NCBI RefSeq assembly: GCF_900113245.1
Contig: NZ_FOOQ01000001.1
Coordinates: forward strand, 868,001 to 932,000
Length of the DNA: 64,000 nucleotides
Reading direction: 5' to 3'
Origin: Halopelagius inordinatus
GTDB lineage: Archaea; Halobacteriota; Halobacteria; Halobacteriales; Haloferacaceae
Part shown: piece by piece, positions 47,617 to 63,444 of the stretch
Layout: every line of letters begins with the position of its first letter
Position numbering within the stretch: position 1 is the stretch's first letter
Notes under the pieces: generated by a model
Told to the model about the DNA's origin: nothing
Database searches by the model: none
Seen by the model: only the letters and a program-made list of their open reading frames with translations
Translations under genes and position numbers: made by a program

Positions 47617-47687
47617 GCGCCGGTGGTCTAGTGGTAGGACCTGAGCCTTCCAAGCTCATGGCCCGGGTTCAAATCCCGGCCGGCGCA
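47617..47687 (+). tRNA. tRNA-Gly (anticodon UCC)
   Basis: A 71-nt cloverleaf. Acceptor GCGCCGG pairs with CCGGCGC, with discriminator A. D-arm GTCT/GGAC. Anticodon arm TGAGC-CTTCCAA-GCTCA with anticodon TCC. T-arm CCGGG-TTCAAAT-CCCGG. It carries no encoded CCA. It reads GGA/GGG codons. The sequence immediately downstream changes to lower GC and unfamiliar genes, so this tRNA probably marks the edge of an inserted island. Confidence 0.97.
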
Positions 47688-47696
47688 TTCCTTTCT

Positions 47697-47780
47697 ATGA
47701 TGAATCGGAGTCACAGCTTTTCGCCAGACAGCGGCGGTGTCATCGGTCTAAAGACCAAAACGGCGCTGTGATTTCATCAT
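47697..47780. repeat. Nested inverted repeat just after tRNA-Gly
   Basis: ATGATGAA (47697-47704) and TCACAGC (47711-47717) are matched by GCTGTGA (47765-47771) and TTCATCAT (47773-47780), forming two perfect stem blocks around a central perfect hairpin GGTCT-AA-AGACC (47745-47756). A direct repeat ATGAATCGG also occurs at both ends. This could be a structured RNA, a terminator/regulatory element or an element-end structure. From here to 47999 I see no supported gene; a 65-codon frame at 47779-47976 has no halophilic character. Confidence 0.4.
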
Positions 47781-47999
47781 GAATCGGAATGGGGGTTCCT
47801 TCCGTCGTGCGATTGGCGTAGAGTATTATTTTCAGGAGAGGATGATAAGTGCTCATCTCGGGTCGAGTATCGACCATACTATCCGTGCCAAACGGACTTC
47901 CCAAGGTCTACTCGGTGAACTCGGAACATACGGACAGGGTACGTCTCTATGGCGGTCATGTGCTACTGCTGAGTGACCACCGATAGTTGAGTCGAGAAA

Positions 48000-48286
48000 C
48001 TATCTTTCCGTCTCGATTTCCCATGACCCGTCCGAATAGGCACGGAGGTATTCGATGCTGTCTCCCTCGTCGTATCCGCTGTAATCTATTGCCGATAAGT
48101 CATCTATCGCGGCGTTCCAGCCGGACGCCGATGCGAAGCGAGAGCTCGCCTCCACAAACAAGGAGAGGTCGTCAATCGGATCGTTAGGACACTCAGCGGA
48201 GACGGAGGTGAGTTCTGGTTATATTGTGTTGACAATCGGCAATCGTTTCGCTGTCACTTCGAGCTCAACTTCGACTTTTTACTCAT
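48000..48286 (-). pseudogene. Broken small gene: frameshift after start plus internal stop
   Basis: An ATG (48286) lies 2 nt after the stop of the upstream 90-residue gene. After ATG AGT AAA the run of five A residues puts the frame out by one. If a sixth A were present, the frame would read MSKKVEVELEVTAKRLPIV then NTI, meet TAA at 48219-48221, and continue PELTSVSAECPNDP...YLRAYSDGSWEIETER to TAG at 48000. The downstream part is clearly acidic haloarchaeal coding sequence of about 72 codons with no start of its own. I infer a ~95-residue gene disabled by two changes. Confidence 0.5.
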
Positions 48287-48288
48287 CT

Positions 48289-48561
48289 TCAGAACTCAAG
48301 CATGGTCTCGCGGTCGTAGTCTGGGCGGTGGCGAAGCTCCCGACTAATCAACTCAAGCTTCTCTTCCTGTCGGTGGACTTCCTCAAGGCAGATTGTGATA
48401 CCGTAGTGGTCGCCGTTCTTGCGTTCAGCTTCCAGAGTCTCTGTTACCTCTGTCAAGTGTCGGTAAGCCGAATTAGCTTCGTCGGCCAGTTTCTCTGTTG
48501 GCAGTGATTGGTACTGTTCTTGGAGAGCAGACACCTCTGCTGGAGGCAGTACGCTCTTCAT
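48289..48561 (-). CDS. Small helical (coiled-coil-like) protein
   Basis: A 90-residue protein, acidic and almost entirely helical, with heptad-like spacing (ALQEQYQSLPTEKLADEANS, LTEVTETLEAERKNGDH, LEEVHRQEEKLELISREL). Not recognised. Its ATG overlaps the stop of the zinc-ribbon gene by four bases (ATGA), and the broken gene follows directly, so the three formed one operon. Lower GC than the core chromosome. Confidence 0.65.
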   Translation of the reverse strand: MKSVLPPAEVSALQEQYQSLPTEKLADEANSAYRHLTEVTETLEAERKNGDHYGITICLEEVHRQEEKLELISRELRHRPDYDRETMLEF

Positions 48562-48743
48562 CTTTTGTCACCTTCCAATATCCCAGTGTACTGGGGCGTC
48601 CCGAACGCTTCCTGAACCAACCACCCAGTTCTCTCGCAAGTTCCGCACCGGTACTGTTCATGGACAACCGTGAGTTCACTACCTTGCGTGAAGCCGTGCT
48701 GGACGGTGAGGAATCCGTCTTCTCTACAGATTTTGCATTTCAT
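48558..48743 (-). CDS. Zinc-ribbon-like small protein
   Basis: A 61-residue protein with two CxxC knuckles: MKCKIC at residues 3-6 and CGTC about 30 residues later, separated by beta-strand-like sequence (GFLTVQHGFTQGSELTVVHE). This is a single small zinc ribbon, possibly nucleic-acid-binding or a regulator. It is first in a three-gene operon with translational overlap to the next gene. Confidence 0.65.
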   Translation of the reverse strand: MKCKICREDGFLTVQHGFTQGSELTVVHEQYRCGTCERTGWLVQEAFGTPQYTGILEGDKR

Positions 48744-48923
48744 TTCTATCTATGGCGACGTTATATCGCCAAGGCCGCCAGAGGGAATCGAACCCCGTTG
48801 ACAGTCACCAGACTGACGGCAGATTTTCCTTGTTTCGACGCGGATTACAGCATCGGCTGGTCAAACGTGGGTTCGGGACTCTGACCGAACAAGTACCGAC
48901 TGTCCAACGAATGGGACGTTCGC

Positions 48924-49208
48924 TTAGTCCGAGTGGAACTGCTGATTGAGTTCAATAACTCGTTCTGATGGTTGATACGGTTCAGCTGTGTCGCGCCGAA
49001 GCTGAATTGACTTCACAACCTCAGTTAAATCGTCTTGGCACTGTGCGGTGGCGATCGATTCATCGGGGTAGACCGTACTGATGTCTGCGTGGAACAACGT
49101 CTGTGCCACGTCAAGAGCATCTATACTCATCGAGAGCACCTTCTCGATGTTGTCCAACAGTGCTTCATACTCTGCCTCACTCATAGGCTCGATTTTGTTA
49201 TGCTTCAT
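48924..49208 (-). CDS. Hypothetical small acidic protein
   Basis: A 94-residue acidic, mainly helical protein (MSEAEYEALLDNIEKVLSMS, IATAQCQDDLTEVVKSIQ). Not recognised. A TATA-like ctaatact lies about 30 nt upstream in the 100-nt region shared with the divergent winged-helix gene. The interval 48744-48923 upstream of the next operon has no supported gene. Confidence 0.6.
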   Translation of the reverse strand: MKHNKIEPMSEAEYEALLDNIEKVLSMSIDALDVAQTLFHADISTVYPDESIATAQCQDDLTEVVKSIQLRRDTAEPYQPSERVIELNQQFHSD

Positions 49209-49307
49209 GTTTGCCTATATGGTGAGAAGAAGTATTAGTACATAAAGACTCGGATTATGCCCCACATATGGCAAGATAATTATCGTCGGAACTCTCTTAC
49301 GAGTAAT
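49209..49307. promoter_or_regulatory. Divergent promoter region
   Basis: This A/T-rich 99-nt gap separates a leftward gene (start 49208) and a rightward winged-helix gene (start 49308). TATA-like sequences face each way: agtattagta near 49230-49240 for the left gene and aagataattatc near 49273-49284 for the right gene, each about 27-30 nt from its ATG. The winged-helix protein could autoregulate here. Confidence 0.45.
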
Positions 49308-49559
49308 ATGACACTCCGCGACCGGGTTTGGGATGCCGTGCTGTGCGAACTTGCAACCGAGGACGCACAGTTCAAAATAAGCGAACTCGACTTTGATGAC
49401 TCCCAGAGGCACACCGTGAGGCGGGTCCTTCGAGAAATGGAGAATCTTTCATGGCTGGAGCGGACCAGCGATGTTGGCCGTATCTGGTACGCTGGAGAGA
49501 AAGCCAGACGGTATGTAAAGTTGTCCGAGGAGGCAGAGCTATTAGAAAACGAGAGTTGA
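49308..49559 (+). CDS. Short winged-helix DNA-binding protein (DISARM-left flank)
   Basis: An 83-residue protein starting MTLRDRVWDAVLCELA. It has a winged-helix pattern with recognition-helix segment QRHTVRRVLREMENLSWLER and wing GRIWYAGEKARRY. It is clearly related to the protein encoded at 62650-62895 (shared LRD.VW, HTVRRVLREME, WL.R and GE.A). An upstream extension of the frame to 49257 has no support because the TATA-like box at about 49278 predicts a start at the ATG. A regulatory role is inferred. Confidence 0.75.
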   Translation: MTLRDRVWDAVLCELATEDAQFKISELDFDDSQRHTVRRVLREMENLSWLERTSDVGRIWYAGEKARRYVKLSEEAELLENES

Positions 49560-49635
49560 GATAGTACATTTCCAGCGTTCACCTCGGCGATCTCCTTAGT
49601 GAAACGACGAAATCCGCGACTTAAACGTATGTATC

Positions 49636-49866
49636 TTGGCTGATGAGAGTTGCATCCCTCTGCGACTTTATGTGCTGGCCCACATTTTTACGTCTGCTAG
49701 AGATGGTGTGAACTATCTCTCCCACCGAAGCATCCTCTTGGAAGCTCGAACGACCTTGCAAACATCTGCACACGAATTCATCTGTACCGTTATCCAACAA
49801 CTGACTAATGACCCAAGTGTTCAAGATGTTTCTCTGACTCGTAGACAATATGCCCGAATACAGTGA
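49636..49866 (+). CDS. Possible small protein, weakly supported
   Basis: A 76-codon frame from TTG 49636, overlapping the next gene by 17 nt. The predicted product is helical (RSILLEARTTLQTSAHEFIC) but not acidic, and a frame of equal length exists on the opposite strand. The only start codon is TTG. It may be coding or chance. Confidence 0.25.
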   Translation: MADESCIPLRLYVLAHIFTSARDGVNYLSHRSILLEARTTLQTSAHEFICTVIQQLTNDPSVQDVSLTRRQYARIQ

Positions 49867-50215
49867 ATCAGACCTACCATCGGAAACGATCTCTGTCGAT
49901 GGACGAACGTGGCGGCGAGAAAGGTTTGAACGTGATGGATACCGCTGGGTTCGGGAGATGGAAGAAAATGAATACGATTGGGACCCAGAAGCAGATGGTG
50001 TTTCTCTCGTTGCAACTGACGTCCCAATTCGTGCCGTAAGCCTGCAGTTCGTTGATAATGAATGGTACGTGGAGGGAGCAGAAACTGCTGGGCCAGATTA
50101 CCATCGACCCGGATTCACCGAGGTCATTAGTAGTGAATTCACAGCCTCGTTTCCTGAAGGATCAGAGACAGAAGCATTTGCAAAAGTCGAAGAGATCATA
50201 TCTGAGATTAGCTGA
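49850..50215 (+). CDS. Hypothetical acidic protein upstream of DISARM
   Basis: A 121-residue strongly acidic soluble protein, not recognised. It has a tryptophan-rich N-terminal region (RTWRRERFERDGYRWVREME) followed by a beta-rich middle (DVPIRAVSLQFVDNEWYVEG) and a helical end. No catalytic motif. It ends 170 nt before the methyltransferase gene on the same strand but appears separated from it by a promoter. Confidence 0.65.
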   Translation: MPEYSESDLPSETISVDGRTWRRERFERDGYRWVREMEENEYDWDPEADGVSLVATDVPIRAVSLQFVDNEWYVEGAETAGPDYHRPGFTEVISSEFTASFPEGSETEAFAKVEEIISEIS

Positions 50216-50320
50216 TTTAGAAGCTCTGTACCGTATCATAGACAAGTCAAGGGAACCTATGCTAGAAACTTGAACGTATAAATGATGGATGTTTGTCTAG
50301 TCTAAAAACGAACGACGGAA

Positions 50321-50330
50321 TTTTTATAAT
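50321..50330 (+). promoter_or_regulatory. TATA box upstream of the DISARM methyltransferase
   Basis: The sequence tttttataat is the strongest TATA-like element before the ATG at 50386. It predicts a transcript start near 50352 and a leader of roughly 34 nt. It probably drives at least drmMII. Confidence 0.5.
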
Positions 50331-50385
50331 GTCCTTCCTTGGAATACGTATCAACTGACGTAGAGCATAGTGAGGAATACATAAA

Positions 50386-51387
50386 ATGTCAAGATTTGAA
50401 TTTGTAGATTTGTTTTCCGGTATCGGAGGGACTCGTGCCGCTTATGAACGAGAGGGTGGTGAGTGTGTGTTCTCCTGTGAAATCGATGGAGACGCCCAAG
50501 AGGTCTACGAGAAGAACTGGGACGAACCCGTTACTGAACAGGACATCCGTCACGTTGAAGCAGAGGCGGTTCCTCCGCACGACCTCCTGCTAGCGTGCTG
50601 GCCCTGTCCGTCGTTCAGTCAGATGGGCAAGCTCGATGGACTCGAAGACGAACGGGGGATGTTGTTCTACCACATCGTTCAGATTCTGAAGGAGAAACAA
50701 CCCAAGGCATTCATGCTGGAGAATGTCAAGAACCTCCGCTTTGTCAAGGACGGCTCTGCCTACGAGACTGTCGTGAATGCACTCCGTGAGTGCGGCTATA
50801 CAGTTCACAGTGAGGTACTGAACGCACTTGACTTCGGCCTCCCCCAGCATCGCGAGCGTCTTATTATCGTGGGCTTCCGCGACGACATCGCCCCCAAAGA
50901 GTTTGATTTCCCAACCGAGAACGAGAACGCACTCAGAACCGAGGATAAACAGCGTGCGGCCCTTGCAGATATTCTCGAAGATAACCCTGATGAGAAGTAC
51001 TTCGCCAGCGATAAGGTGCAGACAGACCGCCTTGATGCAGTTGATGACCCATCCACCGTGCCAGAACCTTCCGTCTGGCATGAAAACCGGAGTGGGTTGG
51101 TAACAACGCGTCCGTACTCGGGAACACTCCGCGCGTCATCCTCGTGGCACTACTTGCTCATCAACGGAAAGCGCAACCCAACGGTTCGTGAGCTTCTCCG
51201 ATTGCAGGGATTCCCCGAATGGTTCGAGATTTCTGATTCGAATCGCTCCCGGGCTCGTCGGCTCACTGGGAATACAGTTCCCATTCCGATGGTCCACACA
51301 GTCGCGAAAGCGTTGCTGGAGGAACTGAACATCGACGACACCTCTGCATCAGAACGGAGTATCGAGACGGCCATGTCTAACAAGTAG
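50386..51387 (+). CDS. drmMII: DISARM DNA (cytosine-5) methyltransferase
   Basis: A 333-residue 5mC methyltransferase. Motif I is FVDLFSGIGGTRAAY. Motif IV is PCPSFSQMG with catalytic Cys74 (Pro replaces the usual Gln after Cys). Motif VI is ENVKNL (E112), motif VIII is QHRERL (154-159), and the final motif is LTGNTVPIPM. In class 2 DISARM such an enzyme methylates host DNA so that the restriction part spares it. The target-recognition region (about 190-270) differs enough that the recognised sequence cannot be predicted. GC is lower than in the core chromosome. Confidence 0.92.
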   Translation: MSRFEFVDLFSGIGGTRAAYEREGGECVFSCEIDGDAQEVYEKNWDEPVTEQDIRHVEAEAVPPHDLLLACWPCPSFSQMGKLDGLEDERGMLFYHIVQILKEKQPKAFMLENVKNLRFVKDGSAYETVVNALRECGYTVHSEVLNALDFGLPQHRERLIIVGFRDDIAPKEFDFPTENENALRTEDKQRAALADILEDNPDEKYFASDKVQTDRLDAVDDPSTVPEPSVWHENRSGLVTTRPYSGTLRASSSWHYLLINGKRNPTVRELLRLQGFPEWFEISDSNRSRARRLTGNTVPIPMVHTVAKALLEELNIDDTSASERSIETAMSNK

Positions 51388-51460
51388 GATATGGTGAAAT
51401 ACCCTCACCATAACATCTTAATACGGATCATCAACTACATGAATAGGGGCTCTATACCAG

Positions 51461-53686
51461 ATGAATGCAATTACAAAACGCGCCGATGCCTGTCGTCAGC
51501 GCGTCTTTATGGGTGGCTTCCACGATGGTACCATCCAAACCGACGGGACGCCGTTTCACCTCGGAACATCCGAGTGCGCTCTCGTCGAAGAAGCTCTCAG
51601 GAAGATTGAGCAGGGACAATCCTACCTTATCCATAACCCATTCCCGACGAAATCCCTACCAGTCGCCTTCATCGCATCGTATGCCTACTCGCAGAACCCA
51701 TCTATCCCGACAGGCGATGGTCTACCGATGCTCGTGTTTCCAGCATCCTCGCAGGGGTATCTAGGTGAGATAGACCAGTTTCACTTCTCAACGACGCAGA
51801 AAGCCAAGCATAACAAGACGCCGCTCATCCCGCGTCATCCCATCGACGCTCTCTCCGAGCAGGGCGACCGGTGGGGTGTCTATACGGCGAAATCGGGATT
51901 CACCTTCGACCACGAACATCACGATGCGCCCGTCGGAGCGGTGTTCGTTGACCTTCGGAAGCCCGAGTGGAGCGAACGGAATTTCGACCGTATCGAGGAG
52001 TTCTGTGAGGAACACCCCGACGTACCCGCCATCTTTTACACCGACGAGATGGGGCCCGCCGCCGAACTCACCGAGGGCCGCATCGAATCCCGCACGCTCC
52101 ACATCACGAACAGCGTACTTGGGCGAGCCCCGCCTGTGGAGGTCGAAACGGGCGAAAGCGACCTGACGACTCAAGAGCGAATCATCACGTCCGGGGACAT
52201 CGAGATACTCCAGTTCCCCGTCACCGACGAGGGCGTCGGCTCGCTCCTCCCCGAACTCATCGACCTGAAGAACCGGTGCCAGAACCGCGACCTCGCATAC
52301 GTCGAGGTTGCCCGCGTGTTCAACCGGCTCACGAAACAACCGTTTAAACCCATCTACTGGTCGCGTACCGTCGGGGCGAACGCCTTCTACGACGATGTGC
52401 CCGGCTACATCGAACGCATCGAGACGCGCGCTGACAACATCGGCTCGGGGAGTGACCTGCTGTACACGTACGCCCGGAAGGCCAACGAGGTACAGGGGCA
52501 TCTCAACGACTGCCACGTTCTACAGAACACCGTCCTCGACGCGATTCAGCGCGCAGGCGATGACGACGCCCAATCACGGTTCGTCGTCAAGAACTCCGCC
52601 GAGCTTGATGCCCTACGCCTCGCCGCAACTGACACCGGTTACGCCATTCCCGAGAACGTTGAAATCGTTGAGCGTGCGGACGTGACGCCGATGCCGGACG
52701 TGCGATACGTGTTCCTCTACCCGCCGTACGCCGACGACTACGTGTACGGGTTCCCACCCTCGAAGCAGGTAGCGTTCATCCACAACGCTCTCTGGTCAAA
52801 CTACGTCCGCAAATCGGCGGCGAGCGCTACCGAGGACATCTCGGTCAGCCACAACTCGACGAGTATCGGCCGATCTGGAACCGTTGGGGACGTAGAAGAC
52901 CACGTGTTCGACATCGACACGCTGGAAAGCGACATCGAGGGGTATCTCCGAACTGCCGACTTCGGTGGCTCACCCTCGTCGTCCGCATCCGACGGTTCCG
53001 CGAGCGTCAAGGCCGACGACGGGTCGTCTACGCAATCGTTCCTGTTTCAGTTCGGCAACGGAGAGAGTCGCCGCTTCTCACCGGACGGTATCGTGACCAT
53101 CTACGAGGCCGAGAAGGCGCGCATCTCTCGCAAGAAGGCGAAGAACGTCTCCGAGGGCGAGGATGTCCTCCTGCTCAATAGCGTGACAGGCGACCTCTAC
53201 GACGTGTTGCTCGAATCCGCACACAAGCGGGAGGCCGTCCGAGAACACGAGCAAACCGTCGAGAACTGGCGTGGAGTCCTCGAACGTGGGCGAGCACGCG
53301 AGGAGATGGAGTACTCAGATGTGGTGGACGCCCTCCAAGAGCACGATTCAGAAATTGAAAGCTGGCACACTGTAAGAGCGTGGGAGAAAGGTCGCTACAT
53401 AGGCCCACTTGACGAAGGCGACTGTCGCCGCATCCTTCACATCTTCCGGCCCGAATTGGAAGGTATTCTGCTCGAACAGATTCACGAGCAAGTCTGGAAG
53501 GCGATGAAACACCTCCGGCTTCTCCATCGCCGGATGGGCCGCAACGTTCGTCGGGCGGTTGAAGCGGAATTCAACCCCTCTACAAGTGCGGGGTTCGGCG
53601 GAGATATCAACGAAAGTATGGTGAGAAATATCTCACGTGACATCGAACGAGAGACTGTCACACGAATTGCACGTACCGATGAATAG
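51461..53686 (+). CDS. drmE: DISARM protein DrmE
   Basis: A 741-residue protein. I assign DrmE from its position between the 5mC methyltransferase and drmA and from its size; class 2 DISARM is defined by this gene. No classic enzyme motif stands out. Visible parts are an N-terminal alpha/beta region (about 60-240, with LPMLVFPASS and VGAVFVDLRKP), a central domain including DVRYVFLYPPYADDYVYGFP (about 405-425), a serine/aspartate-rich linker near 500-525, and a charged helical C-terminus. No signal peptide or membrane helix. It starts 74 nt after drmMII. Confidence 0.75.
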   Translation: MNAITKRADACRQRVFMGGFHDGTIQTDGTPFHLGTSECALVEEALRKIEQGQSYLIHNPFPTKSLPVAFIASYAYSQNPSIPTGDGLPMLVFPASSQGYLGEIDQFHFSTTQKAKHNKTPLIPRHPIDALSEQGDRWGVYTAKSGFTFDHEHHDAPVGAVFVDLRKPEWSERNFDRIEEFCEEHPDVPAIFYTDEMGPAAELTEGRIESRTLHITNSVLGRAPPVEVETGESDLTTQERIITSGDIEILQFPVTDEGVGSLLPELIDLKNRCQNRDLAYVEVARVFNRLTKQPFKPIYWSRTVGANAFYDDVPGYIERIETRADNIGSGSDLLYTYARKANEVQGHLNDCHVLQNTVLDAIQRAGDDDAQSRFVVKNSAELDALRLAATDTGYAIPENVEIVERADVTPMPDVRYVFLYPPYADDYVYGFPPSKQVAFIHNALWSNYVRKSAASATEDISVSHNSTSIGRSGTVGDVEDHVFDIDTLESDIEGYLRTADFGGSPSSSASDGSASVKADDGSSTQSFLFQFGNGESRRFSPDGIVTIYEAEKARISRKKAKNVSEGEDVLLLNSVTGDLYDVLLESAHKREAVREHEQTVENWRGVLERGRAREEMEYSDVVDALQEHDSEIESWHTVRAWEKGRYIGPLDEGDCRRILHIFRPELEGILLEQIHEQVWKAMKHLRLLHRRMGRNVRRAVEAEFNPSTSAGFGGDINESMVRNISRDIERETVTRIARTDE

Positions 53687-53736
53687 AGTGAATAACCGCT
53701 TGTACATCAACGAGTTATAACCAAGAGAGCATACAC

Positions 53737-56700
53737 GTGGACAAAAACACACATACGGACGGAGGGCGCGTCACGAGCCCAGAGACCATGCCGGTCTCTG
53801 CGGGCGACGACGACCGCGCTGATCCGACGCCTCACGACGCTATCGGTGCATCGCTTCTCGACGAATCCATCACTCGGGCACGCGGCTGGCACCAACCGTA
53901 CTGCGTCTCCGAAGAACCGAAACGGAAGTACTATGTTTCGAACCTCGCGCCAACCCACGGAGCCGACCTTGACGAGGGCGAAGACGAGGAGTTCGTTTCT
54001 CAAATCAAACCTAGTGCCATCACGTTGGATTTCCGCCCGTCCGACCGCGAGGCGACGCTCAAACCCATCGAGCTCTCCTTCGAGGTCTACTACCCCAGCC
54101 ATCCGACCTACAACGAGTACTGTGAGCTTCTCGAACGTTCCCAGCGGGCCGCCGCGCTCAATCACGAGGCGGCGACTGGCGAGGACGCCAAGACGGTGGA
54201 CATCGACGACCTCGACGAGACGACGTTCTACCGGCTCGACGAGGACTTCTACCGGCGCGTGGACGTGCGCATCGAGGACGAACTCGACCTCTCTGATCCT
54301 CGTGGCGAGAGCGAACGGCTGACCCAGCGGCTTCGCGACGCGACCGAGGATGCTCTCGAAGACGCGACCGACGTGGACGCCGGCGGTGTCAAAGCCACCC
54401 GGGACACGGCCTCGCCCGCCGACTGGGAGGACAACGACATCAACCTCCACGACCTCTCGAAGGACGAGTTCGAGACGGTCGTCGCCACGTTCGACGACCT
54501 CCCCACTGACGAGAACGAGTGGGCGGCCTCGTTCGCGGCAGAGGTGCGCGACACCGAGGTCTCGCTCCGTCTGATGAACGAACCCGTCGCCTCGGACGAG
54601 GACGGCGAGGGGGCCGACGAATCGCACATCTTCAACCCGAAAATCGCCGTCGAAGGCGCACTTGACCGCTACGAGTTCGACCTCGGGCCCGACGACTACC
54701 GATTCGACCAGTTCATCTGGGCGAAGGGACACAATTGCTCGACGACTATCGAGGAACTCGACGGCGAGGGGTCGAGCCGCCGCGTCGCCACCACTGCGAC
54801 GCCGAGTTCGCCTGTCTACGAGTTTGAGTTCAACAACGACTACGACACCCGCTTCGAAGCACTCGCTGGCGATGCACCCGGGAAGTCAACCATCGAGGTG
54901 CTGGACGACATCTCCGAAGGGATGGACGAATTCCTCGGGGAATGGCGCGGCTCGCGCAAGTCGGAGTTCAAACGTGAATATGGCGAGGAATCCGAGGAGT
55001 TCAAGGAGTTCATGGACGCCGCCGACAACTTCGAGGAGGAGGCCAACCGCTTCGACGCGGGCATCGAGGTGCTCCGCAACGAAGACGACATTCTGCAGGC
55101 GTTCCAGATGATGAACCGCGTTAACAACGTCGTCCACAACATCAAAGCCGACGCCTTCGACGCGTGGCGGCTCTTTCAGTTGGTGTTCGTCGTTTCGAAC
55201 ATCCCAAGCATCGTCACACGCGACCCTGACCCGCGCTTCGACATTTACGAGAGCCAGTACGACGACATGGCAGAGGTGCTGTGGTTCCCGACCGGTGGGG
55301 GCAAGACCGAAGCGTACCTCGGACTCGTGCTATTCAACCTATTCTTTGACCGGATGCGCGGCAAGAGCCGAGGTGTCACGGCGTGGATTCGGTTCCCACT
55401 CCGCCTGCTCTCGCGCCAGCAGAAACAACGGTTCATGGAGGCGATGCTCGAAGCTGACGAACTCCGTCGCGCCCCCGAAGACGAGGGCGGCCTCGGCGGA
55501 CGGGGCCGCGAGTTCTCGCTGGGCTACTTCGTCGGGTCGCAGGACTCCCCGAACGACATCGGGAAGAACAACCGCCTGCACGAGGACTTCCGTGCAAGCC
55601 ACGAGACGCTCGAAGATAAGTGCAAGCACCTCGACACCTGTCCGCTGTGCGGGAGCGACGTGCGCGTTGAGTACGAAGAGGACGAGAACACCGTCTACCA
55701 CCACTGCACTGGGAGCGACCTCAACGACGGCGACGAATGCATCGACCGTCTCCCCATCTACGTGACCGACCACGACATCTACCGGTATCAGCCGTCGGTC
55801 CTACTAGGGAGCCTCGACAAAATCGCCGTGATGGGGATGCAACCGCTGTTCGCGAACCTGCTGGGGAACTTCACCACGGAGTGCCCCGAACACGGCATCG
55901 GTTACTCGGGGCGCTGTCCCGAGAAGCACATCTGCGACTACGAGGACGACTCCGAGGAGTTCATCAACATGGAGCCGGGGACGCGCGACCCCGACCGCCG
56001 GGAGGACGCCGAGTTCTTCGACCCGGTACCGACGCTCCACCTCGTGGACGAGGTTCACCTGCTCAACGAGGAACTCGGTGCGTTCGCAAGCCACTACGAG
56101 ACGATGTTCCTCACGCTGTGTGAGCGGCTCTACGGCGTCACGCCGAAGGTGCTGACCTCGACGGCAACCATCGCGGAGTACAAACGGCAGATTCGCAACC
56201 TCTTCCAGATGGAGGCGACGCGCTTTCCCGAGGAGGGGCCCGAACTCGGGGAAACGTTCTACGGCGAACTCTCCGAGATGGAAGTCGAACGCGAGTACCA
56301 CGGGCTAACGCCCAACAACCGCACGCACCTGTACGCGGTGCTTGACCTCGTGAAGCAGTACCACGAGGTCATACGTGAATACTACGAGGACGACCCCGCA
56401 GAGGTCGCCGCGAACGCAGGGCTCGACCCTGACGACATCGACGACATCGATGAGACGGTCGCGGACGTACTCGACGCCTACGAGACCTCGCTAGTGTATT
56501 TCACTAACAAGCGCGAGAAGGACACCTACCGGAAGAACATCCGCAAGCAAATCAACGACGAGATGCGCGACGAGGGGTACGCGCCGCCGCTGGAAGCTCA
56601 ACAGTTGACGGCGGACACGCGCAACGACGAAATCCTCCCACGCCTTGAACGTGAGGGCGAGTACGAGGATGCCTCATTCGAGGAGCGCATCGACACGGTG

Positions 56701-57495
56701 CCTGCTACGTCGTTCGTCGGTCACGGCATCGACGTGGATCGGTTCAACTTCATGCTGTTCTTCGGGTACCCCAGCCAGACGTTCCAGTATATCCAAGCGT
56801 CCTCCCGCGTCGGACGGCAGGAGGGCGTCCCCGGCCACGTACTGGACGTGTTCCGCCCGTTCGACAAGCGAGACCGCCACCGCTACAAGTACTTTGAGAA
56901 GCTGCACGAGTACCTCTCACGGACGGTGGAGCCGGTGCCTATCGACCGCTGGGCGAAGTTTGCCGTCGAGAAGACCTTCCCCGGCATCCTGATGGCCATC
57001 CTCATCCAGTACTACCGTCCGCTGATGTTCCGCAAGACCGACGAAGACGGCGACCCGATGACCATCAAGGCGCGCGGGAAGACCAAGCGGGTGAACGTCC
57101 AGAACGCCGACCACCTCTACGAGATAATAAACAACGACGCGCGCTTCCCCGAACTTACGAAGGACGAAATCGCGGAGTTCCTCGCGGACGCGTATGTCCT
57201 GCGCGATAAGCCGACGTACATCTCGTACATGCCGACCGACGCCGACGGCAACCCCGGCTTCTACACGAACGAGTACTTCCGCGAGAAAGTGCTCGACGGG
57301 CGCGGCGACGAGCTCAGCCGCCTTGACGAAATCTGGCGGCACTGGATGGATAAGCTCGACACCGGGATGTCAACGCCGGAGTTCCCTGGTGATGACGGGC
57401 CGATGATTAGCCTGCGCGACATCGGCAAGAGCGCCAAGATAACGAACCATCAGGCCCACGAGGACTTCATCGACGCGCTCACGAAGTCGTCGTAA
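53737..57495 (+). CDS. drmA: DISARM helicase DrmA
   Basis: A protein of 1252 residues from GTG 53737; an in-frame ATG at 53788 (MPVSAGDDD) is an alternative and fits the TATA-like gttataa near 53716 better. It is a superfamily 2 helicase. The Walker A is PTGGGKT at 518-524, the DEVH box at 771-774, and motif VI ASSRVGRQ at 1021-1028. Between motifs I and II is a cysteine-rich insert (C629, C635, C638 and later CPEHG...CPEKHIC) likely binding zinc. The 500-residue acidic N-terminus precedes the motor. In DISARM, DrmA works with DrmB to bind and process incoming DNA. Confidence 0.88.
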   Translation: MDKNTHTDGGRVTSPETMPVSAGDDDRADPTPHDAIGASLLDESITRARGWHQPYCVSEEPKRKYYVSNLAPTHGADLDEGEDEEFVSQIKPSAITLDFRPSDREATLKPIELSFEVYYPSHPTYNEYCELLERSQRAAALNHEAATGEDAKTVDIDDLDETTFYRLDEDFYRRVDVRIEDELDLSDPRGESERLTQRLRDATEDALEDATDVDAGGVKATRDTASPADWEDNDINLHDLSKDEFETVVATFDDLPTDENEWAASFAAEVRDTEVSLRLMNEPVASDEDGEGADESHIFNPKIAVEGALDRYEFDLGPDDYRFDQFIWAKGHNCSTTIEELDGEGSSRRVATTATPSSPVYEFEFNNDYDTRFEALAGDAPGKSTIEVLDDISEGMDEFLGEWRGSRKSEFKREYGEESEEFKEFMDAADNFEEEANRFDAGIEVLRNEDDILQAFQMMNRVNNVVHNIKADAFDAWRLFQLVFVVSNIPSIVTRDPDPRFDIYESQYDDMAEVLWFPTGGGKTEAYLGLVLFNLFFDRMRGKSRGVTAWIRFPLRLLSRQQKQRFMEAMLEADELRRAPEDEGGLGGRGREFSLGYFVGSQDSPNDIGKNNRLHEDFRASHETLEDKCKHLDTCPLCGSDVRVEYEEDENTVYHHCTGSDLNDGDECIDRLPIYVTDHDIYRYQPSVLLGSLDKIAVMGMQPLFANLLGNFTTECPEHGIGYSGRCPEKHICDYEDDSEEFINMEPGTRDPDRREDAEFFDPVPTLHLVDEVHLLNEELGAFASHYETMFLTLCERLYGVTPKVLTSTATIAEYKRQIRNLFQMEATRFPEEGPELGETFYGELSEMEVEREYHGLTPNNRTHLYAVLDLVKQYHEVIREYYEDDPAEVAANAGLDPDDIDDIDETVADVLDAYETSLVYFTNKREKDTYRKNIRKQINDEMRDEGYAPPLEAQQLTADTRNDEILPRLEREGEYEDASFEERIDTVPATSFVGHGIDVDRFNFMLFFGYPSQTFQYIQASSRVGRQEGVPGHVLDVFRPFDKRDRHRYKYFEKLHEYLSRTVEPVPIDRWAKFAVEKTFPGILMAILIQYYRPLMFRKTDEDGDPMTIKARGKTKRVNVQNADHLYEIINNDARFPELTKDEIAEFLADAYVLRDKPTYISYMPTDADGNPGFYTNEYFREKVLDGRGDELSRLDEIWRHWMDKLDTGMSTPEFPGDDGPMISLRDIGKSAKITNHQAHEDFIDALTKSS

Positions 57496-57546
57496 CGCCA
57501 CGCGAACACATCTTTCAGACACCCATACAGGAGATACCACGATACG

Positions 57547-59661
57547 ATGTCATCCGACAACAAGACGATGGAACGCTCACAGTCGAAGTTCATCTACGAC
57601 TACCTGCCGTGGAACACGTTCAACCACGCGCACAACAACCTCAGCGGGCGCATCGCCGCGCTCTCGCCCGAACGCGGCGAGTACGGCGAGGAAATCGATC
57701 CCGACCTGCCAAAGAACTACCTCATCGAGCGCATCCACCGCCACATCTCGAAGTGGCCTAACGACGACGACATCCGCGACGACCTCACGTACGCGAACAC
57801 CGAACTCGTCCAGCCCGGGTGGGCGAACTACCTCGTCTACCCGCTCACCTTCGAGTGCGACGCCTGCGGGTCGGTGACGAAGTTCTCGCGCGACCAGATG
57901 GACGAGATGGCCGATGAGTCCAGCGACGCCCGAGACCTCGCGGTCTGCCAGAATCCCAACTGCGGGTCGTCGCTGTCCGATCGCGACCAGTTGCCGTTCG
58001 TCGCCGTCTGCGAGTGCGGAACCATCGACCAACTCAACGTCCCGACCTGTTGCGGTGCAGGGATGGTGTTCCACCGCCCAACCACTCAGATGGACTCGTG
58101 GTACTGGGAGTGCGCCGTGGACTCCTCACACGACACCACGTCGTTCTACGGCACGCCCGTCCACTGTCCGAACGGGGACTGCAACAACGAGAATATGGAG
58201 GTGATGAACCACACCTCCAGTAGCGCGTTCTACCCACAGGTGCGCAACCTCATCAACGTCCAGCCCCAACTCGACGACCTCCACTCAAGCGACCACCAGC
58301 AGGCCCGCTACGTATCCGACTACCTGCTCGGAGACGAGGGCGGCGAGGTGGACGAACACGAACAGCGTCAGGTCGCCAACGAACTGCTTGAAGGCGACTT
58401 CTTCAACGCCCCTCGCGAGGAGGTCGAGGCGAAACTAAAGGAGGCAAAAGATCGATTGATGGTGGACGTTCAGGAACACCGCAATCTCACCGAGACGTGG
58501 CTTCAGGGCGAGGAACCCACCGAGGGAGACTGGCCGTCAGGCGGCTACTACGGCGACCCCACGACGCTTGCGGAGGAACTGTACGAGTACCTCAGCGTCG
58601 TCTCACCGGACTATGCTCCCGCCAGCGGTATTGAGTCGGTCTCCTATCAGGAGATGGTGGACAACAACGCCGAGGATACCCACCTTTCGCTCCCGAAGGT
58701 CAAGAAGTACAACCAGCTTCGCGAGGCACTGAACTTCGCGGAGGTCCGCCTCATCAAGGACTTCCCCATCACGCAAGCCACCTACGGCTACACGCGAACC
58801 GACGCCAACCCGCCCGGCGAGAACCGCAATCCCGCCACGAGCAACCCTGAAGAGGACGCTCGCCACGGCGACGATGATTCCGACGACGGCGAAGAACACG
58901 TCGAGACCGAGGACAGCGACGTGGGGGCGTCCACTTCCGAGGAGGATGAGGGTATCCCCGTCCAGTTGAAGCTGTTCACGACTGGCGAGTACTCTGCCCC
59001 GCAGGTGTTCGTCCAAACTAACGACGCAGAGGCCGTCCTCGTCCAATTCGATCTCGAAAAGGTGGTTACGTGGCTCGACGAGAACGGCCTGCTAGACGCC
59101 TCAGGGGTCGACCCCGGCGAGGCGGTCAAGCGCCCGGACACCGACGATGAGGAGGCGATTCGTAACTGGTTCGTCGCCAATATTGACCCGCCGGGTCGCT
59201 ACGACGAACTCGATTCCGATGCCGCCCCCGGAACCCATGCATGCGTCTCTCGGCACTGCTATACGCTTCTCAATACGACGGCACACTTGTTCATCAACGG
59301 GATGGGCGCACTCGCGGGCCACCAGCGCGAGTCGCTCGTCGAACACCTGATGCCCCGCACGATGAGCTTCGTCGTCTACAAGCGCCCCGACACCGATTTC
59401 GCGCTCGGCTCGGTCTGGACGCTTTTCGAGGAACAGTTCGACGACTTCGCCGCCCACCTCGACGAACTGTACGATTGCTCGTACGACCCGGTGTGCATCC
59501 ACGACGAGAACGGCGCGTGCGAGGACTGCCTGTATCTCGCGGCTATTTCCACGGAGAACGCTAACCACAACCTCGGTCGCGGCACGTTCTACGGCGGGAA
59601 CTTCGACGGGCGCGACCTCACCGGTTACAGGCACATCACCCTCGACGCTCAAGACGACTGA
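57547..59661 (+). CDS. drmB: DISARM protein DrmB (DUF1998)
   Basis: A 704-residue protein. The N-terminal third has a set of zinc-binding cysteine pairs (C104-C107 in FECDACGS, then CQNPNCGS, CECG, HCPNGDC). The C-terminal region is DUF1998, ending in the cluster C650...C658-C661 (CIHDENGACEDC). An acidic low-complexity stretch (about 430-465) separates the parts. DrmB is the accessory partner of the DrmA helicase. The gene starts 51 nt after drmA, with no strong promoter between them. Confidence 0.88.
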   Translation: MSSDNKTMERSQSKFIYDYLPWNTFNHAHNNLSGRIAALSPERGEYGEEIDPDLPKNYLIERIHRHISKWPNDDDIRDDLTYANTELVQPGWANYLVYPLTFECDACGSVTKFSRDQMDEMADESSDARDLAVCQNPNCGSSLSDRDQLPFVAVCECGTIDQLNVPTCCGAGMVFHRPTTQMDSWYWECAVDSSHDTTSFYGTPVHCPNGDCNNENMEVMNHTSSSAFYPQVRNLINVQPQLDDLHSSDHQQARYVSDYLLGDEGGEVDEHEQRQVANELLEGDFFNAPREEVEAKLKEAKDRLMVDVQEHRNLTETWLQGEEPTEGDWPSGGYYGDPTTLAEELYEYLSVVSPDYAPASGIESVSYQEMVDNNAEDTHLSLPKVKKYNQLREALNFAEVRLIKDFPITQATYGYTRTDANPPGENRNPATSNPEEDARHGDDDSDDGEEHVETEDSDVGASTSEEDEGIPVQLKLFTTGEYSAPQVFVQTNDAEAVLVQFDLEKVVTWLDENGLLDASGVDPGEAVKRPDTDDEEAIRNWFVANIDPPGRYDELDSDAAPGTHACVSRHCYTLLNTTAHLFINGMGALAGHQRESLVEHLMPRTMSFVVYKRPDTDFALGSVWTLFEEQFDDFAAHLDELYDCSYDPVCIHDENGACEDCLYLAAISTENANHNLGRGTFYGGNFDGRDLTGYRHITLDAQDD

Positions 59662-59762
59662 ACGCCTCGACCTCACCCGGGGCATTCGTCGAACTTGACC
59701 CGAACTTCGCAGGGTTCAGCGCGGCAGTCCATCGCGATTGTTGACATCCATACGAATATACT

Positions 59763-60620
59763 ATGACCTCAACCTCAGCGGACCTCGACTCAGACGCACT
59801 GCTCGAAACGGCTCGCATCGTCGCGGAGGCCGTCCCAGCTGACGCGCTTGACGGCGTTCGCGCCAGCCTCGAATACCTGCACTACGCTGATCGTGCTGTC
59901 CGCCCGGATGTGCTTCGCGATGTCGCACCGTGTGACCTCTCGATGACGGAAGCTGAGAATATTGTCTACCAACTCGCCATCGAGGGCATTCTTGACGACG
60001 ACCACCTCAACGTCGAGGCACTCCGGTCGGCGTTTGTCGGGGCACGCCTACTCACTGCGCAGACTGAGCCGCCGGAGAACACCATCGTTGCCACTATCCC
60101 CTACGACGACCCCGCGCTTGACCCCGGGATGTTCGAGCCACTTCATGGCAACCTGCTGAACCTTATTCGGTCGGCGGACGACGACCTCGTGTTGATGAGC
60201 CCGTTCCTGAGTGAACGAGCCTACGAACGACTGCGCCCGGCACTCCACACAGCGACGGACAACGGCGCGAGCATCACGCTCATTACGCGCTCGCTCACGT
60301 ACGGGGAGACGGAGTACAACCGGGGGTTCGCTCGTGCCGTTCATGACGACGCGCGGCTCGCGCCCCATACCACGACCTACGAATACATCGACGACGAGAC
60401 GTGGACGACCTTCCACGCGAAAATCGTCATCGCGGACGGCCAGTGCGCCTATCTCGGCACAGCGAACCTCACACATACGGGTCTCGGTGACAACCTCGAA
60501 CTGGGCGTTATCTTCCGCGATAACACAGCGTCACGCATTACTGCGCTAGTCGAGAACCTTCGACAATCAGAGTTCTTTCATGAGGTTACTGCTTCAAGCG
60601 ACTCGTTCCGTCGTTCGTGA
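59763..60620 (+). CDS. drmC: DISARM phospholipase-D-family protein DrmC
   Basis: A 285-residue PLD-superfamily protein with one HKD motif: H218, K220, D225 and the following GTAN (232-235) in FHAKIVIADGQCAYLGTANL. One motif per chain means a dimeric active site. The N-terminal ~120 residues are helical and unassigned. The expected activity is nuclease or phosphodiesterase. It closes the five-gene locus, 101 nt after drmB. In the characterised Bacillus class 2 system this component was not essential. Confidence 0.85.
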   Translation: MTSTSADLDSDALLETARIVAEAVPADALDGVRASLEYLHYADRAVRPDVLRDVAPCDLSMTEAENIVYQLAIEGILDDDHLNVEALRSAFVGARLLTAQTEPPENTIVATIPYDDPALDPGMFEPLHGNLLNLIRSADDDLVLMSPFLSERAYERLRPALHTATDNGASITLITRSLTYGETEYNRGFARAVHDDARLAPHTTTYEYIDDETWTTFHAKIVIADGQCAYLGTANLTHTGLGDNLELGVIFRDNTASRITALVENLRQSEFFHEVTASSDSFRRS

Positions 60621-60649
60621 TGGGCGACTACGACAGCACGTGAGATTTT

Positions 60650-60905
60650 TCAGGCTAGAAGGGACCATCGTATTACCATCATCCGCTTCGTCCATGAGTG
60701 CATAGTCCAGTGATCAACATCCGCGAGACGAGTGGCCTGTCCGAAGGTTACTTCCTCTCGCTCACATCGTGCGACAGCGGCTTCAACTCGCTTTCTGTTG
60801 TCAAACCTCAATCGCCCCATACTCTTGCATACGACTCCCAAGAACACAAGAATAGAGTCCGCAAACTGTTCGCAGAAGGAGGACGTTTGGGAGTCTACGC
60901 AGATT
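60650..60905 (-). pseudogene. Decayed UPF0175-like antitoxin/helix-turn-helix gene
   Basis: The minus strand reads FDNRKRVEAAVARCERE then EVTFGQATRLADVDHWTM, a typical UPF0175-style short helix-turn-helix ending, but the frame shifts on both sides. The next frame offers MDEADDGNTMVPSSLKNL downstream, and an upstream fragment reads RMQEYGAI before joining. No complete gene can be built. It is probably the remnant of an antitoxin or small regulator. The rest of the 300-nt gap between drmC and the lipoprotein gene shows nothing. Confidence 0.45.
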
Positions 60906-60920
60906 GATGGGTAGTGTCCA

Positions 60921-61895
60921 CTATGGAGTCCAGTAGGCTTCGTAGGTTCCCTCGTCGAGACGTTTGTCAGTTCCAAAGATGAGGGCTTCAGCTTCTGCAT
61001 CGGCCTCTGCTTTGAAGAGAAGTTTCCCAGAGACGCTCTCTCCCACGTTCAGTCGCTGTTCCGAGGGGAACTTCCAGTCTGTTCCGTCGTGGTGGATGTG
61101 TTCTGCGGAGTGATGTCGGCCATTTTCCACATGGTCAGTGACGAAGAAGTCCTGCGTGGCAGGCGTCTCGACCAGTTCCTCAGCGACGTTCGTCGCCGTG
61201 ACTTCGACGTACAGATACTTCGCGTCATCCTCGTACGGGAAGTTCTTTTGTTCCGTTCCCTCTCTGTCCGTATACAGGTAATGGGACTGGCTCCCAACTT
61301 CATCTACCTCTAATTCGACTCCGAGTGGCGTTTGATACGTTTCGTTTTGGGAGAGGACTCGTGGGAGGAATTCGATTTCAATCGTCGTGTGTAGTTCGTC
61401 GAAGCGGAAGTAGACCGTCTCTATGAACGGCCACGTTATCGCGCTCGAATACGTTTTCGTCTCTCCAGCCTCAAAGTCCATGTTGATGGTCTCGTCTATA
61501 CCGGTCCACGGTGACGAGTCTACTCTTCTCGAAAATGAAATGCCGGACGTAAGTGTTCCAGCTTCTCCGCCTACGTTCTTAATCTCAATCTCGACAGGTG
61601 TTTCGACACCAATTTGTGCTTGTTCTGGTGTGTGAATCGCCGTAACACTGAACTCGGCGGGGCCTGCTGTTTCTTCATCTGGATTGATTGAATCGGCGTC
61701 GTCTGTTGACTGGGGGGTCTCAGTCGCATGCGATGTCCGGGTGGAGGTTGGTTCCGTTGTTGCTGTTGCGGATGGGGTCGCTGTATCCGCCGTCCCTCCG
61801 TCGTTACCTCCCAGACAGCCTGCTGTTGAGAATAGTACGCCTGTGAGACCGGCGATGAGGCCGCGTCGCGAGGGGTGGGGCCAATTGTTTGGCAC
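60921..61895 (-). CDS. Tat-exported lipoprotein
   Basis: A 324-residue protein. Twin arginines (SRRGLIAGLTGVLFSTAGC) and lipid-anchor Cys27 mark Tat export and lipidation. A threonine/aspartate-rich linker (about 30-75) leads to a two-part extracellular domain of beta character (TAIHTPEQAQIGVETPVEIE, KYLYVEVTATNVAEELVE), resembling CARDB/DUF4352-like adhesion or binding folds. Function unknown. Codon use is less GC-rich than in chromosomal lipoproteins of this window. Confidence 0.78.
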   Translation of the reverse strand: MPNNWPHPSRRGLIAGLTGVLFSTAGCLGGNDGGTADTATPSATATTEPTSTRTSHATETPQSTDDADSINPDEETAGPAEFSVTAIHTPEQAQIGVETPVEIEIKNVGGEAGTLTSGISFSRRVDSSPWTGIDETINMDFEAGETKTYSSAITWPFIETVYFRFDELHTTIEIEFLPRVLSQNETYQTPLGVELEVDEVGSQSHYLYTDREGTEQKNFPYEDDAKYLYVEVTATNVAEELVETPATQDFFVTDHVENGRHHSAEHIHHDGTDWKFPSEQRLNVGESVSGKLLFKAEADAEAEALIFGTDKRLDEGTYEAYWTP

Positions 61896-62082
61896 TTCCT
61901 ATTGGCTGTTGTCGAGTTGACATAATCTTACGGGTAGCGGAAGGAGAAATAACGAATCCGACATATAACAGTTAGAAGGGTGCCATGTCTCCGTTGTATT
62001 CTACAGATGAGCAAGGCGAGTGCCGTCACTTCTGAATATCCGTACCTCTAAAAGGCATTCTACAGCGGTTTGACTACCCTAT

Positions 62083-62631
62083 TTAGTCTACTGTACCGCT
62101 GGTTTCGGTATCGACCTCAGAGGGATGTGCCTCGAATGCCCGAGCAAGTGACTGTTGGAACTCGCTAAACGTGGGACAGTACTTGGGTGCATCCTCGTCA
62201 GCGACGATCACTTCTCCCGGGAACCTCTCTTCCAGTTCTCCTCGGTGGTCATGGTCATCTGTTCCGGCGAATACGATAGATGGCCACGAGAGGTTGTGAG
62301 GTTTGTAAGCCTCATCATCTGTACGAATACCCTCATAGAGAGGCGACTCCTCTGGACCGAGACTGTTCAAAAACTTACGGAGGTCCGTTTTTGCCTCCAG
62401 TACGTGAGGTATTCGCCGGGGGTCCCCGTATCGTACCATGTAGTCTGCACGCTCGATTCTTGCCTCACACCATGCGTCGAGATTCGCGACTAGTGTGAGT
62501 TCAAAGACAGAACCAAGCAGTTCAAGGTAAACCTTTAGCGAGGCCTCGTTCTTGTATCCGCCATTCCAGAGGTTTGGGACTGTACTCGGCATTCTGTGTG
62601 CGTAGTCAAGTCTCGGGTATGTGTCTGTCAT
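62083..62631 (-). CDS. Hypothetical protein with possible PD-(D/E)xK nuclease motif
   Basis: A 182-residue protein, not recognised as a known family. Its middle shows a restriction-nuclease-like pattern: an acidic helix (KNEASLKVYLELLG, E29), then RADYMVRYGD with D63 and PHVLEAKTD with E79-x-K81. The D to ExK spacing of 16 residues and the hydrophobic strands around each are in keeping with that fold. It lies 18 nt after a winged-helix gene on the same strand, in the island containing DISARM. Nuclease activity is a hypothesis. Confidence 0.6.
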   Translation of the reverse strand: MTDTYPRLDYAHRMPSTVPNLWNGGYKNEASLKVYLELLGSVFELTLVANLDAWCEARIERADYMVRYGDPRRIPHVLEAKTDLRKFLNSLGPEESPLYEGIRTDDEAYKPHNLSWPSIVFAGTDDHDHRGELEERFPGEVIVADEDAPKYCPTFSEFQQSLARAFEAHPSEVDTETSGTVD

Positions 62632-62649
62632 CGGTAGTAGTTATAATCG

Positions 62650-62895
62650 TCAGTCCCACGCCTGTTTGATGTGGTCGCGTGAGACGTTCAGATGCAGTTT
62701 TGCTTCCTCTCCGATACGCCAAGTAGCGGCGCGCTTGTTCTCACGCGCGAGCCAGTCCATCGTTTCCATCTCGCGGAGAACGCGCCGGACGGTATGGTGC
62801 TGTTCCTCGTTAAACGGGAGGTCACTGAGACGGAATTTGCCAGTCTTTCGAAGCTGGAGCAAACAGGCGCTCCAAACTTGGTCTCGTAGGATCAT
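62650..62895 (-). CDS. Short winged-helix DNA-binding protein (DISARM-right flank)
   Basis: An 81-residue protein starting MILRDQVWSACLLQLR. Winged-helix pattern with EQHHTVRRVLREMETMDWLA and wing ATWRIGEEAKLHL. It is paralogous to the gene at 49308-49559. The frame continues upstream to 63057, but the ATG at 62895 gives the matching length. It probably regulates the gene immediately downstream (62083-62631) or the island. The 221 nt upstream contains no other gene. Confidence 0.72.
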   Translation of the reverse strand: MILRDQVWSACLLQLRKTGKFRLSDLPFNEEQHHTVRRVLREMETMDWLARENKRAATWRIGEEAKLHLNVSRDHIKQAWD

Positions 62896-63116
62896 GTGAT
62901 GTGGTCTCTCAGGACATACGTTGAAAGAGAGATATATGAGTGCTCTTATTTTCTGCTGTTTGAGGTGTTGACCAAGAGTGTACAACTCCTTACAGACTAC
63001 ATAGGGGCACTGAAGGGTCCAAATCGGTTTATCCATCACATCTGATAAGATAGACATGTGGTCCTCTGAAGGAAGAACACCAGATTGGGATGTGAACGGA
63101 GCGTTCTGAATGAGGT

Positions 63117-63365
63117 GTGTCCCTGATGCATCGCGAGCTCCGGGAAACTCTCCACGTCGAGAACAGGAAGCAGGTGACTATGGAAAACTACACCCTCGGT
63201 CATCTTCGAGAAGAGGACGTGCAGATGTTCACGTTGAGGACAGGTTACGCCATTACCGGTGGCACCTGCTCACTACTGGGCGCTCAACCGGCGGCCAATA
63301 CCACCCTTCCATTCAGGGGTATTGGTGCCACTAAGGGGTCGTACGTCCCGAAAAAAGCCAAATAA
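63117..63365 (+). CDS. Hypothetical small protein
   Basis: A protein of 82 residues from GTG 63117; in-frame ATGs at 63126 and 63180 are alternatives. It contains MENYTLGHLREEDVQMFTL followed by a glycine-rich hydrophobic stretch (GYAITGGTCSLLGA) and a lysine-rich end. It is neither acidic nor recognised. It could be a small secreted or membrane-active peptide, or chance. Low support. Confidence 0.35.
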   Translation: MSLMHRELRETLHVENRKQVTMENYTLGHLREEDVQMFTLRTGYAITGGTCSLLGAQPAANTTLPFRGIGATKGSYVPKKAK

Positions 63366-63444
63366 GGCATAGAAGAAGGCGAAGCGATTCTAACTTATTC
63401 ACAACATTCCCGAACTAACACCAATAGGCTTCGGAACCGTAGCT

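What the first reader, a model, noticed from the sequence alone, without database searches (positions are those of the whole stretch)
50386..60620. Complete class 2 DISARM anti-phage locus in a haloarchaeon
Five same-strand genes read as a 5mC methyltransferase, a ~740-residue protein in the DrmE position, a 1252-residue SF2 helicase with a cysteine-rich insert, a DUF1998 protein and a single-HKD phospholipase D. Established knowledge: drmA, drmB and drmC plus drmMII and drmE define class 2 DISARM, described mainly from bacteria. The gene order here is M-E-A-B-C. All key motifs are visible, so the system looks intact.
Basis: partly seen in the sequence, partly recalled or inferred. Interest (0 to 1): 0.85.

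Follow-up and report, generated by a model that had tools for sequence, protein, structure and literature searches.

The report
Class 2 DISARM in a haloarchaeon
This salt-loving archaeon carries an apparently intact five-gene antiviral system of a known kind (class 2 DISARM) on a roughly 31-kb mobile DNA island; the find is real but ordinary, and its least understood gene is predicted to make a helicase-shaped protein that has lost its engine.

Summary
Five same-strand ORFs at 50386-60620 match DrmMII, DrmE, DrmA, DrmB and DrmC; all frames are open, and the catalytic motifs of the methyltransferase, helicase and PLD nuclease are present. Gene order is M-E-A-B-C. The interpretation (class 2 DISARM) is supported, with one qualification: the proteins are a divergent branch and fall below NCBIfam's narrow cut-offs, and DrmE is recognised mainly by Pfam's DrmE_N/DrmE_C. 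Novelty is low. DrmE_N occurs in 11 of 391 haloarchaeal genomes and DrmE_C in 31. Halobacterium, Halomicrobium and Haloplanus plasmids already carry RefSeq-annotated DrmE loci, and one PADLOC DrmE model matches the Halomicrobium protein end to end. What I add: (i) the locus is cargo of an island of about 31 kb at a tRNA-Gly, with an integrase, attachment-site repeats and an empty site in a same-genus genome; (ii) the DrmE_N-type E-A-B trio forms one DrmA clade, and its neighbours vary (M+C, CARF + CARF-PIN, UvrD-PDDEXK, PLD-SNF2), as if effectors were exchangeable; (iii) the first 470 residues of DrmE are predicted (pLDDT 89) to fold like an SF2 helicase core without a Walker A motif. Antiviral activity is untested.

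The parts
47617..47687 (+). tRNA-Gly (TCC), the integration site of the island; its 3' end is repeated at the far border (attL side)
   Evidence: ARAGORN; an 18-bp copy at window-continued 78937 and a 20-bp copy at 79040 (genome contig C1 = window + 868000); same tRNA with an empty site in G286
47688..64000 (.). left part of an integrated island of about 31 kb (continues to about 78957, beyond the window), G+C 0.43-0.63 against about 0.66 around it
   Evidence: composition; tyrosine recombinase at window-continued 77755-78825 (-); empty site
50310..50385 (+). candidate promoter region of the operon (TTTTTATAA-like TATA box about 50-65 bases upstream of drmMII)
   Evidence: read from sequence; weak, not tested
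50386..51387 (+). drmMII: C5-cytosine DNA methyltransferase, 333 aa
   Evidence: PF00145 1e-76; PADLOC MTase_II 5.5e-90 and DrmMII 3.5e-65; motifs intact; 66-74% identical to the M gene of four other M-E-A-B-C loci
51461..53686 (+). drmE: 741 aa, DrmE_N (32-237) and DrmE_C (529-704); residues 1-470 predicted to be an SF2-helicase-like tandem RecA fold without a Walker A motif
   Evidence: Pfam; PADLOC DrmE 1.8e-7; NCBIfam DrmE_fam 2e-22; AF2 model pLDDT 88.8; Foldseek
53737..57495 (+). drmA: SF2 (YprA-family) helicase, 1252 aa, with a Cys-rich insert in RecA1
   Evidence: PADLOC DrmA 1.4e-122; NF038325 3e-111; PDB 7s9v_A 1.7e-52; motifs
57547..59661 (+). drmB: 704 aa, C-terminal four-Cys DUF1998/HAR-type module (C644, C650, C658, C661)
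   Evidence: PADLOC DrmB 3.5e-40; NF038324 8e-9, below its cut-off; Cys invariant in 10 loci
59763..60620 (+). drmC: single-HKD phospholipase D-type nuclease, 285 aa
   Evidence: PADLOC DrmC 1.2e-17; PLDc_2 6e-13; HxK(4)D...GTAN

Best explanation
The locus is a complete, probably functional class 2 DISARM system of a haloarchaeal branch, carried as cargo on an integrative element. Proposed working: (1) DrmMII methylates a set of cytosines in host DNA and marks it as self (inferred from the family). (2) DrmA-DrmB form an ATP-driven ssDNA-loading helicase complex that engages unmodified, overhang-bearing or replicating foreign DNA (shown by others for Serratia class 1 DrmAB, PMC9142583; inferred here from homology and intact motifs). 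(3) DrmE, predicted here to be a helicase-shaped protein without an ATPase site, acts as a non-hydrolysing DNA- or protein-binding subunit of the DrmA-DrmB core, for example as clamp, loader or gate (my inference). (4) DrmC, a PLD nuclease, cuts the engaged DNA, although DrmC is reported dispensable in tested systems. Shown here: gene content, motifs, conservation, operon-like layout, mobility of the island. Inferred: every functional step.
For: All five component profiles hit in one same-strand cluster; DrmA aligns with solved DrmA 7s9v/7s9w over both RecA domains; catalytic motifs present. M-E-A-B-C order kept in four further haloarchaeal loci, L016, L017, L020 and L021, whose DrmA proteins form one supported clade with the window's (100/99). 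dN well below dS wherever dS was computable. The island also carries a GmrSD/HEC-05 restriction gene and a SIR2 PDC-S25 candidate defence gene, i.e. defence-island surroundings; tRNA-Gly attachment-site repeats, integrase and an empty site in G286.
Against: A, B and C, and the DrmE equivalog model, score far below NCBIfam cut-offs (DrmA 373 of 950 bits, DrmB 35 of 240, DrmC 61 of 133, DrmE 51 of 250; the broader DrmE_fam 79 of 80), and the PADLOC DrmE profile matches only the C-terminal part, so transfer of mechanism from tested systems is uncertain. DrmE_N-type E-A-B trios occur without adjacent M and C in five of the other haloarchaeal loci plus a near-identical sixth, so M may not be essential to the trio. 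No expression, methylation or plaque data exist.
Confidence: 0.9

Rival explanations
1. Type II-like orphan methyltransferase that merely lies next to a DISARM-like E-A-B-C defence cassette: M modifies DNA for another purpose (mobile-element protection, host epigenetics) and E-A-B-C works without it.
For: M's best PADLOC profile is a generic type II MTase rather than DrmMII (5.5e-90 against 3.5e-65); E-A-B occurs without the adjacent 5mC gene in L018, L022, L023, L024, L025 and L026; in L060 the MTase is on the opposite strand.
Against: M sits immediately upstream of E, same strand, in five loci of one DrmA clade and is as conserved (66-74%) as its neighbours; gaps are operon-sized.
Confidence: 0.12
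2. A DISARM-related but distinct YprA-helicase defence system (ARMADA, BRIGADE, Dpd or Druantia type) rather than DISARM.
For: Scores fall below DISARM equivalog cut-offs; the YprA family is known to hold many uncharacterised DISARM-like classes (PMC12458937).
Against: Separate genes for helicase and DUF1998-type protein, a PLD gene after DrmB and a DrmE-family gene are DISARM traits; DrmA and DrmB profiles win by a wide margin over DpdF, and no DruE, DpdJ, BrxHII or PglX partner is found in the locus.
Confidence: 0.05
3. Decayed or silent defence cargo: intact frames but no longer active.
For: It sits on a lower-G+C integrated element; the drmE of the relative L020 is split by a frame change, so decay may occur in this group.
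Against: All five window genes are full length and motif-complete; dN well below dS against relatives where computable.
Confidence: 0.1

Closest known systems
Class 2 DISARM (drmMII, drmE, drmA, drmB, drmC; Ofir et al. 2018, original paper not held here)
   Same: All five components by profile, clustered on one strand
   Different: Divergent haloarchaeal branch; below narrow NCBIfam cut-offs; DrmE bears the Pfam DrmE_N domain
Annotated haloarchaeal DISARM loci: Halobacterium sp. GSL-19 plasmid NZ_CP070375 (E-A-B-C plus a 5mC MTase on the other strand), Halomicrobium urmianum plasmid NZ_CP084091 (E-A-B-C)
   Same: Same E-A-B-C order in haloarchaea, DrmE annotated by RefSeq; one PADLOC DrmE model fits the Halomicrobium protein end to end
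   Different: DrmA only about 32% identical, and their DrmE lacks a DrmE_N hit; related to the window DrmE at profile level (hhalign 98.8%, E 5e-17)
Haloplanus rubicundus plasmid NZ_CP031147 DrmE locus
   Same: DrmE 32% and DrmA 49% identical; same DrmE_N type
   Different: E-A-B only, no adjacent M or C; CARF and CARF-PIN genes upstream
Class 2 DISARM of Woesearchaeales tailed proviruses (PMC11705971)
   Same: Archaeal class 2 DISARM on an integrated element (DrmE, DrmA, DrmB, MTase_II)
   Different: Other archaeal lineage, within proviruses; no DrmC listed
Serratia DrmAB (class 1, PDB 7s9v/7s9w, PMC9142583)
   Same: DrmA RecA cores align
   Different: Class 1 (DrmD type); the class 2 subunit DrmE was not part of that study

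Membership tests
DISARM (core) | DrmA SF2/YprA helicase | tested here: met
   PADLOC 1.4e-122, NF038325 3e-111 though 373 of 950 bits, 7s9v 1.7e-52, motifs
DISARM (core) | DrmB as a separate DUF1998-type gene directly after drmA | tested here: met
   PADLOC DrmB 3.5e-40; four-Cys motif invariant in 10 loci; the Pfam MZB model itself does not hit
DISARM (core) | DrmC PLD-family nuclease | tested here: met
   PADLOC DrmC 1.2e-17, PLDc_2 6e-13, HKD motif
Class 2 DISARM | DrmMII 5mC methyltransferase | tested here: met
   PF00145 1e-76, PADLOC DrmMII 3.5e-65; product specificity not testable here
Class 2 DISARM | DrmE | tested here: met
   DrmE_N 2e-89, DrmE_C 2.5e-44, far over Pfam cut-offs; PADLOC DrmE 1.8e-7 over the C-terminal part only; NCBIfam DrmE_fam 79 of 80 bits and DISARM_DrmE 51 of 250
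Class 1 DISARM | DrmMI adenine methyltransferase and DrmD SNF2 helicase | tested here: not met
   None among the 18 ORFs scanned at the locus and in the island; the rest of the genome was not searched
DISARM | NCBIfam cut-offs for the named proteins (stricter than membership of the family; a name-assignment threshold) | tested here: not met
   A 373/950, B 35/240, C 61/133, E 51/250 and 79/80: a divergent branch of the families
DISARM | Restricts viruses; host genome methylated at cognate sites | not testable with these tools
   needs plating and long-read methylation data
Druantia/Dpd/ARMADA (YprA relatives) | Helicase fused to DUF1998, with partner genes DruH, Dpd set, BrxHII or PglX | tested here: not met
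   Helicase and DrmB are separate genes; no such partners found among the ORFs scanned

The most novel reading that the evidence does not exclude
DrmE is a catalytically dead SF2-type helicase that serves as a structural partner of DrmA-DrmB, and in haloarchaea the E-A-B trio is a portable sensing/translocating core to which different marking and cutting modules (M+C, CARF-PIN, UvrD-PDDEXK, PLD-SNF2) are attached, including a nucleotide-signal-linked version.
Probability: 0.4. Interest if true: 0.55.

Novelty: new member of a known kind. Interest (0 to 1): 0.33.

Why it matters
It is a clean, complete class 2 DISARM in an archaeal lineage, on an element with a demonstrable empty site, so presence/absence effects on haloviruses are directly testable. 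DrmE is the least understood DISARM subunit; a helicase-like fold without a Walker A motif gives a testable role. Partner swapping around E-A-B offers natural variants for asking which parts sense and which parts cut.

Tried and rejected
Scans for relatives by DrmE peptide patterns in genome and viral contigs found nothing; alignment A1 was too diverse to search with. tblastn of DrmA against phage records: no match. Megablast of the locus against plasmids: no match. DrmE as a sequence-level paralogue of DrmA: rejected, hhalign probability 0.1%. DrmE against solved structures by sequence: nothing significant. drmB first seemed missing in L021; that came from my greedy ORF picker, and the full reading frame is there. 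The original DISARM paper (Ofir et al. 2018) is not held.
Full report
Observation. PADLOC, Pfam and NCBIfam scans identify, in order, a C5 methyltransferase (DrmMII), DrmE, DrmA, DrmB and DrmC. DrmA matches the solved Serratia DrmA over both RecA-like domains (1.7e-52). The methyltransferase, helicase and PLD motifs are present. The helicase's cysteine-rich insert is real (C629-C733; C629, C635, C638, C657, C716 and C727 are invariant in the alignment of nine). Proteins are strongly acidic (pI 4.3-5.0), as expected of haloarchaea, and the relatives that match come from that class.

How firm is the label. DrmE is the discriminating gene. It hits Pfam DrmE_N (2e-89) and DrmE_C (2.5e-44) far above cut-off, PADLOC DrmE weakly and only in the C-terminal part, and NCBIfam DrmE_fam at 79 bits against a cut-off of 80. 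Relatives of the window DrmE (L016, L026) pass the DrmE_fam cut-off. A profile-profile comparison with the E-position proteins of Halobacterium, Halomicrobium and Rubrobacter plasmids gives 98.8% probability over 644 columns. The window protein is therefore a DrmE, of a divergent branch. No class 1 marker (DrmD, DrmMI) was found among the ORFs scanned at the locus and in the island.

Relatives. In 391 haloarchaeal genomes DrmE_N occurs in 11 and DrmE_C in 31. By my count, about 52 have a strong DrmA match (E < 1e-70), and these include all 11. M-E-A-B-C in the same order is found in L016, L017, L020 and L021, and E-A-B-C with a separate 5mC methyltransferase in L019. A DrmA tree puts the window with these M-E-A-B-C loci (100/99) inside a DrmE_N group (100/100), apart from the Halobacterium-type systems. 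dN is well below dS in all comparisons where dS was computable; many M and E pairs were saturated.

Island. The locus lies in a stretch of lower G+C starting at a tRNA-Gly gene (47617-47687). An 18-bp copy of the tRNA's 3' end lies at window-continued 78937 and a 20-bp copy at 79040, with a tyrosine recombinase at 77755-78825 next to them. In the same-genus genome G286 the same tRNA and the right-hand anchor are 1.2 kb apart instead of 33.2 kb. G286 also has an extra partial repeat about 102 bases after the tRNA, so the repeat at 79040 is probably old and the one at 78937 the border. That makes the insert about 31 kb. Other cargo: an MCM helicase, an HNH protein, a GmrSD/HEC-05 gene and a SIR2 PDC-S25 gene. 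Tyrosine recombinases 54% and 36% identical to the window's lie near the L021 and L025 DISARM loci. tRNA-borne islands with 16-20 nt repeats are described as common carriers of YprA-helicase defence systems (PMC12458937).

DrmE fold. An AlphaFold2 model of residues 1-470 reached pLDDT 88.8 and pTM 0.84. All 50 listed PDB matches are SF2 helicases, SNF2-type translocases or complexes holding one (best E 1.1e-5; TM normalised by query 0.22-0.47), and the full-length model gives the same kind of list. At the place of the Walker A loop all ten aligned proteins lack GxGK[ST] (window: IHNPFPTKS), and the Walker B-like strand reads VFVDLR, with D164 and R166 invariant. I read this as a helicase fold without an ATPase site. 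TM-scores are modest and rmsd large, so this is a strong hint and not proof; there is no detectable sequence kinship with DrmA.

Partner exchange. DrmE_N-type E-A-B trios without adjacent 5mC M and C have other neighbours: CARF plus CARF-PIN (L026, L023, L024), an amino-methyltransferase and UvrD-PDDEXK (L022), a PLD-SNF2 helicase (L018), a DUF2254 protein (L025). Adjacency is not proof of joint function.

Mechanism. Following Bravo et al. (PMC9142583), DrmAB loads on ssDNA or 5'-overhang DNA, its ATPase is damped by methylation, and a nuclease may be recruited; DrmC is reported dispensable. Those data are for a class 1 system, and the paper itself says the role of DrmE remains to be studied. 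For the window, methylation of self by DrmMII, sensing and translocation by DrmAB, a non-hydrolysing role of DrmE and cutting by DrmC are inferences.

Verdict. Haloarchaeal class 2 DISARM is already annotated in RefSeq, one PADLOC DrmE model fits a haloarchaeal protein end to end, and an archaeal class 2 DISARM is published (PMC11705971). I found no experimental study of a haloarchaeal DISARM in the held library.

Noticed in passing
L003 (window-continued 64001-84000): 71068-72942 (-) and 76252-77715 (+): The same island carries a GmrSD-type protein (PADLOC HEC-05, 2.8e-118) and a SIR2 protein (PDC-S25, 3.7e-72): further candidate defence genes.
   Followed up: partly
window-continued 65311-67524 (+): MCM helicase gene inside the island, suggesting a replicating integrative element.
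   Followed up: no
L026:6893-8409; L023:13322-14883: CARF plus CARF-PIN gene pair directly upstream of a DrmE-A-B trio lacking adjacent M and C (two lineages; L024 is a near copy of L023): possible signal-linked DISARM variant.
   Followed up: partly
L018:1566-5198; L022:9-4405; L025:3655-5814: Other neighbours of E-A-B trios: PLD-SNF2 helicase; PDDEXK and UvrD-PDDEXK proteins; DUF2254 membrane-type protein.
   Followed up: partly
L020:8930-11147: drmE split by a frame change near codon 382 in an otherwise intact M-E-A-B-C locus (real decay or assembly error).
   Followed up: no
window-continued 78937-79064: Tandem partial tRNA-Gly 3' ends; G286 also has a second partial copy about 102 bases after the tRNA at its empty site, suggesting repeated past integration there.
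   Followed up: partly
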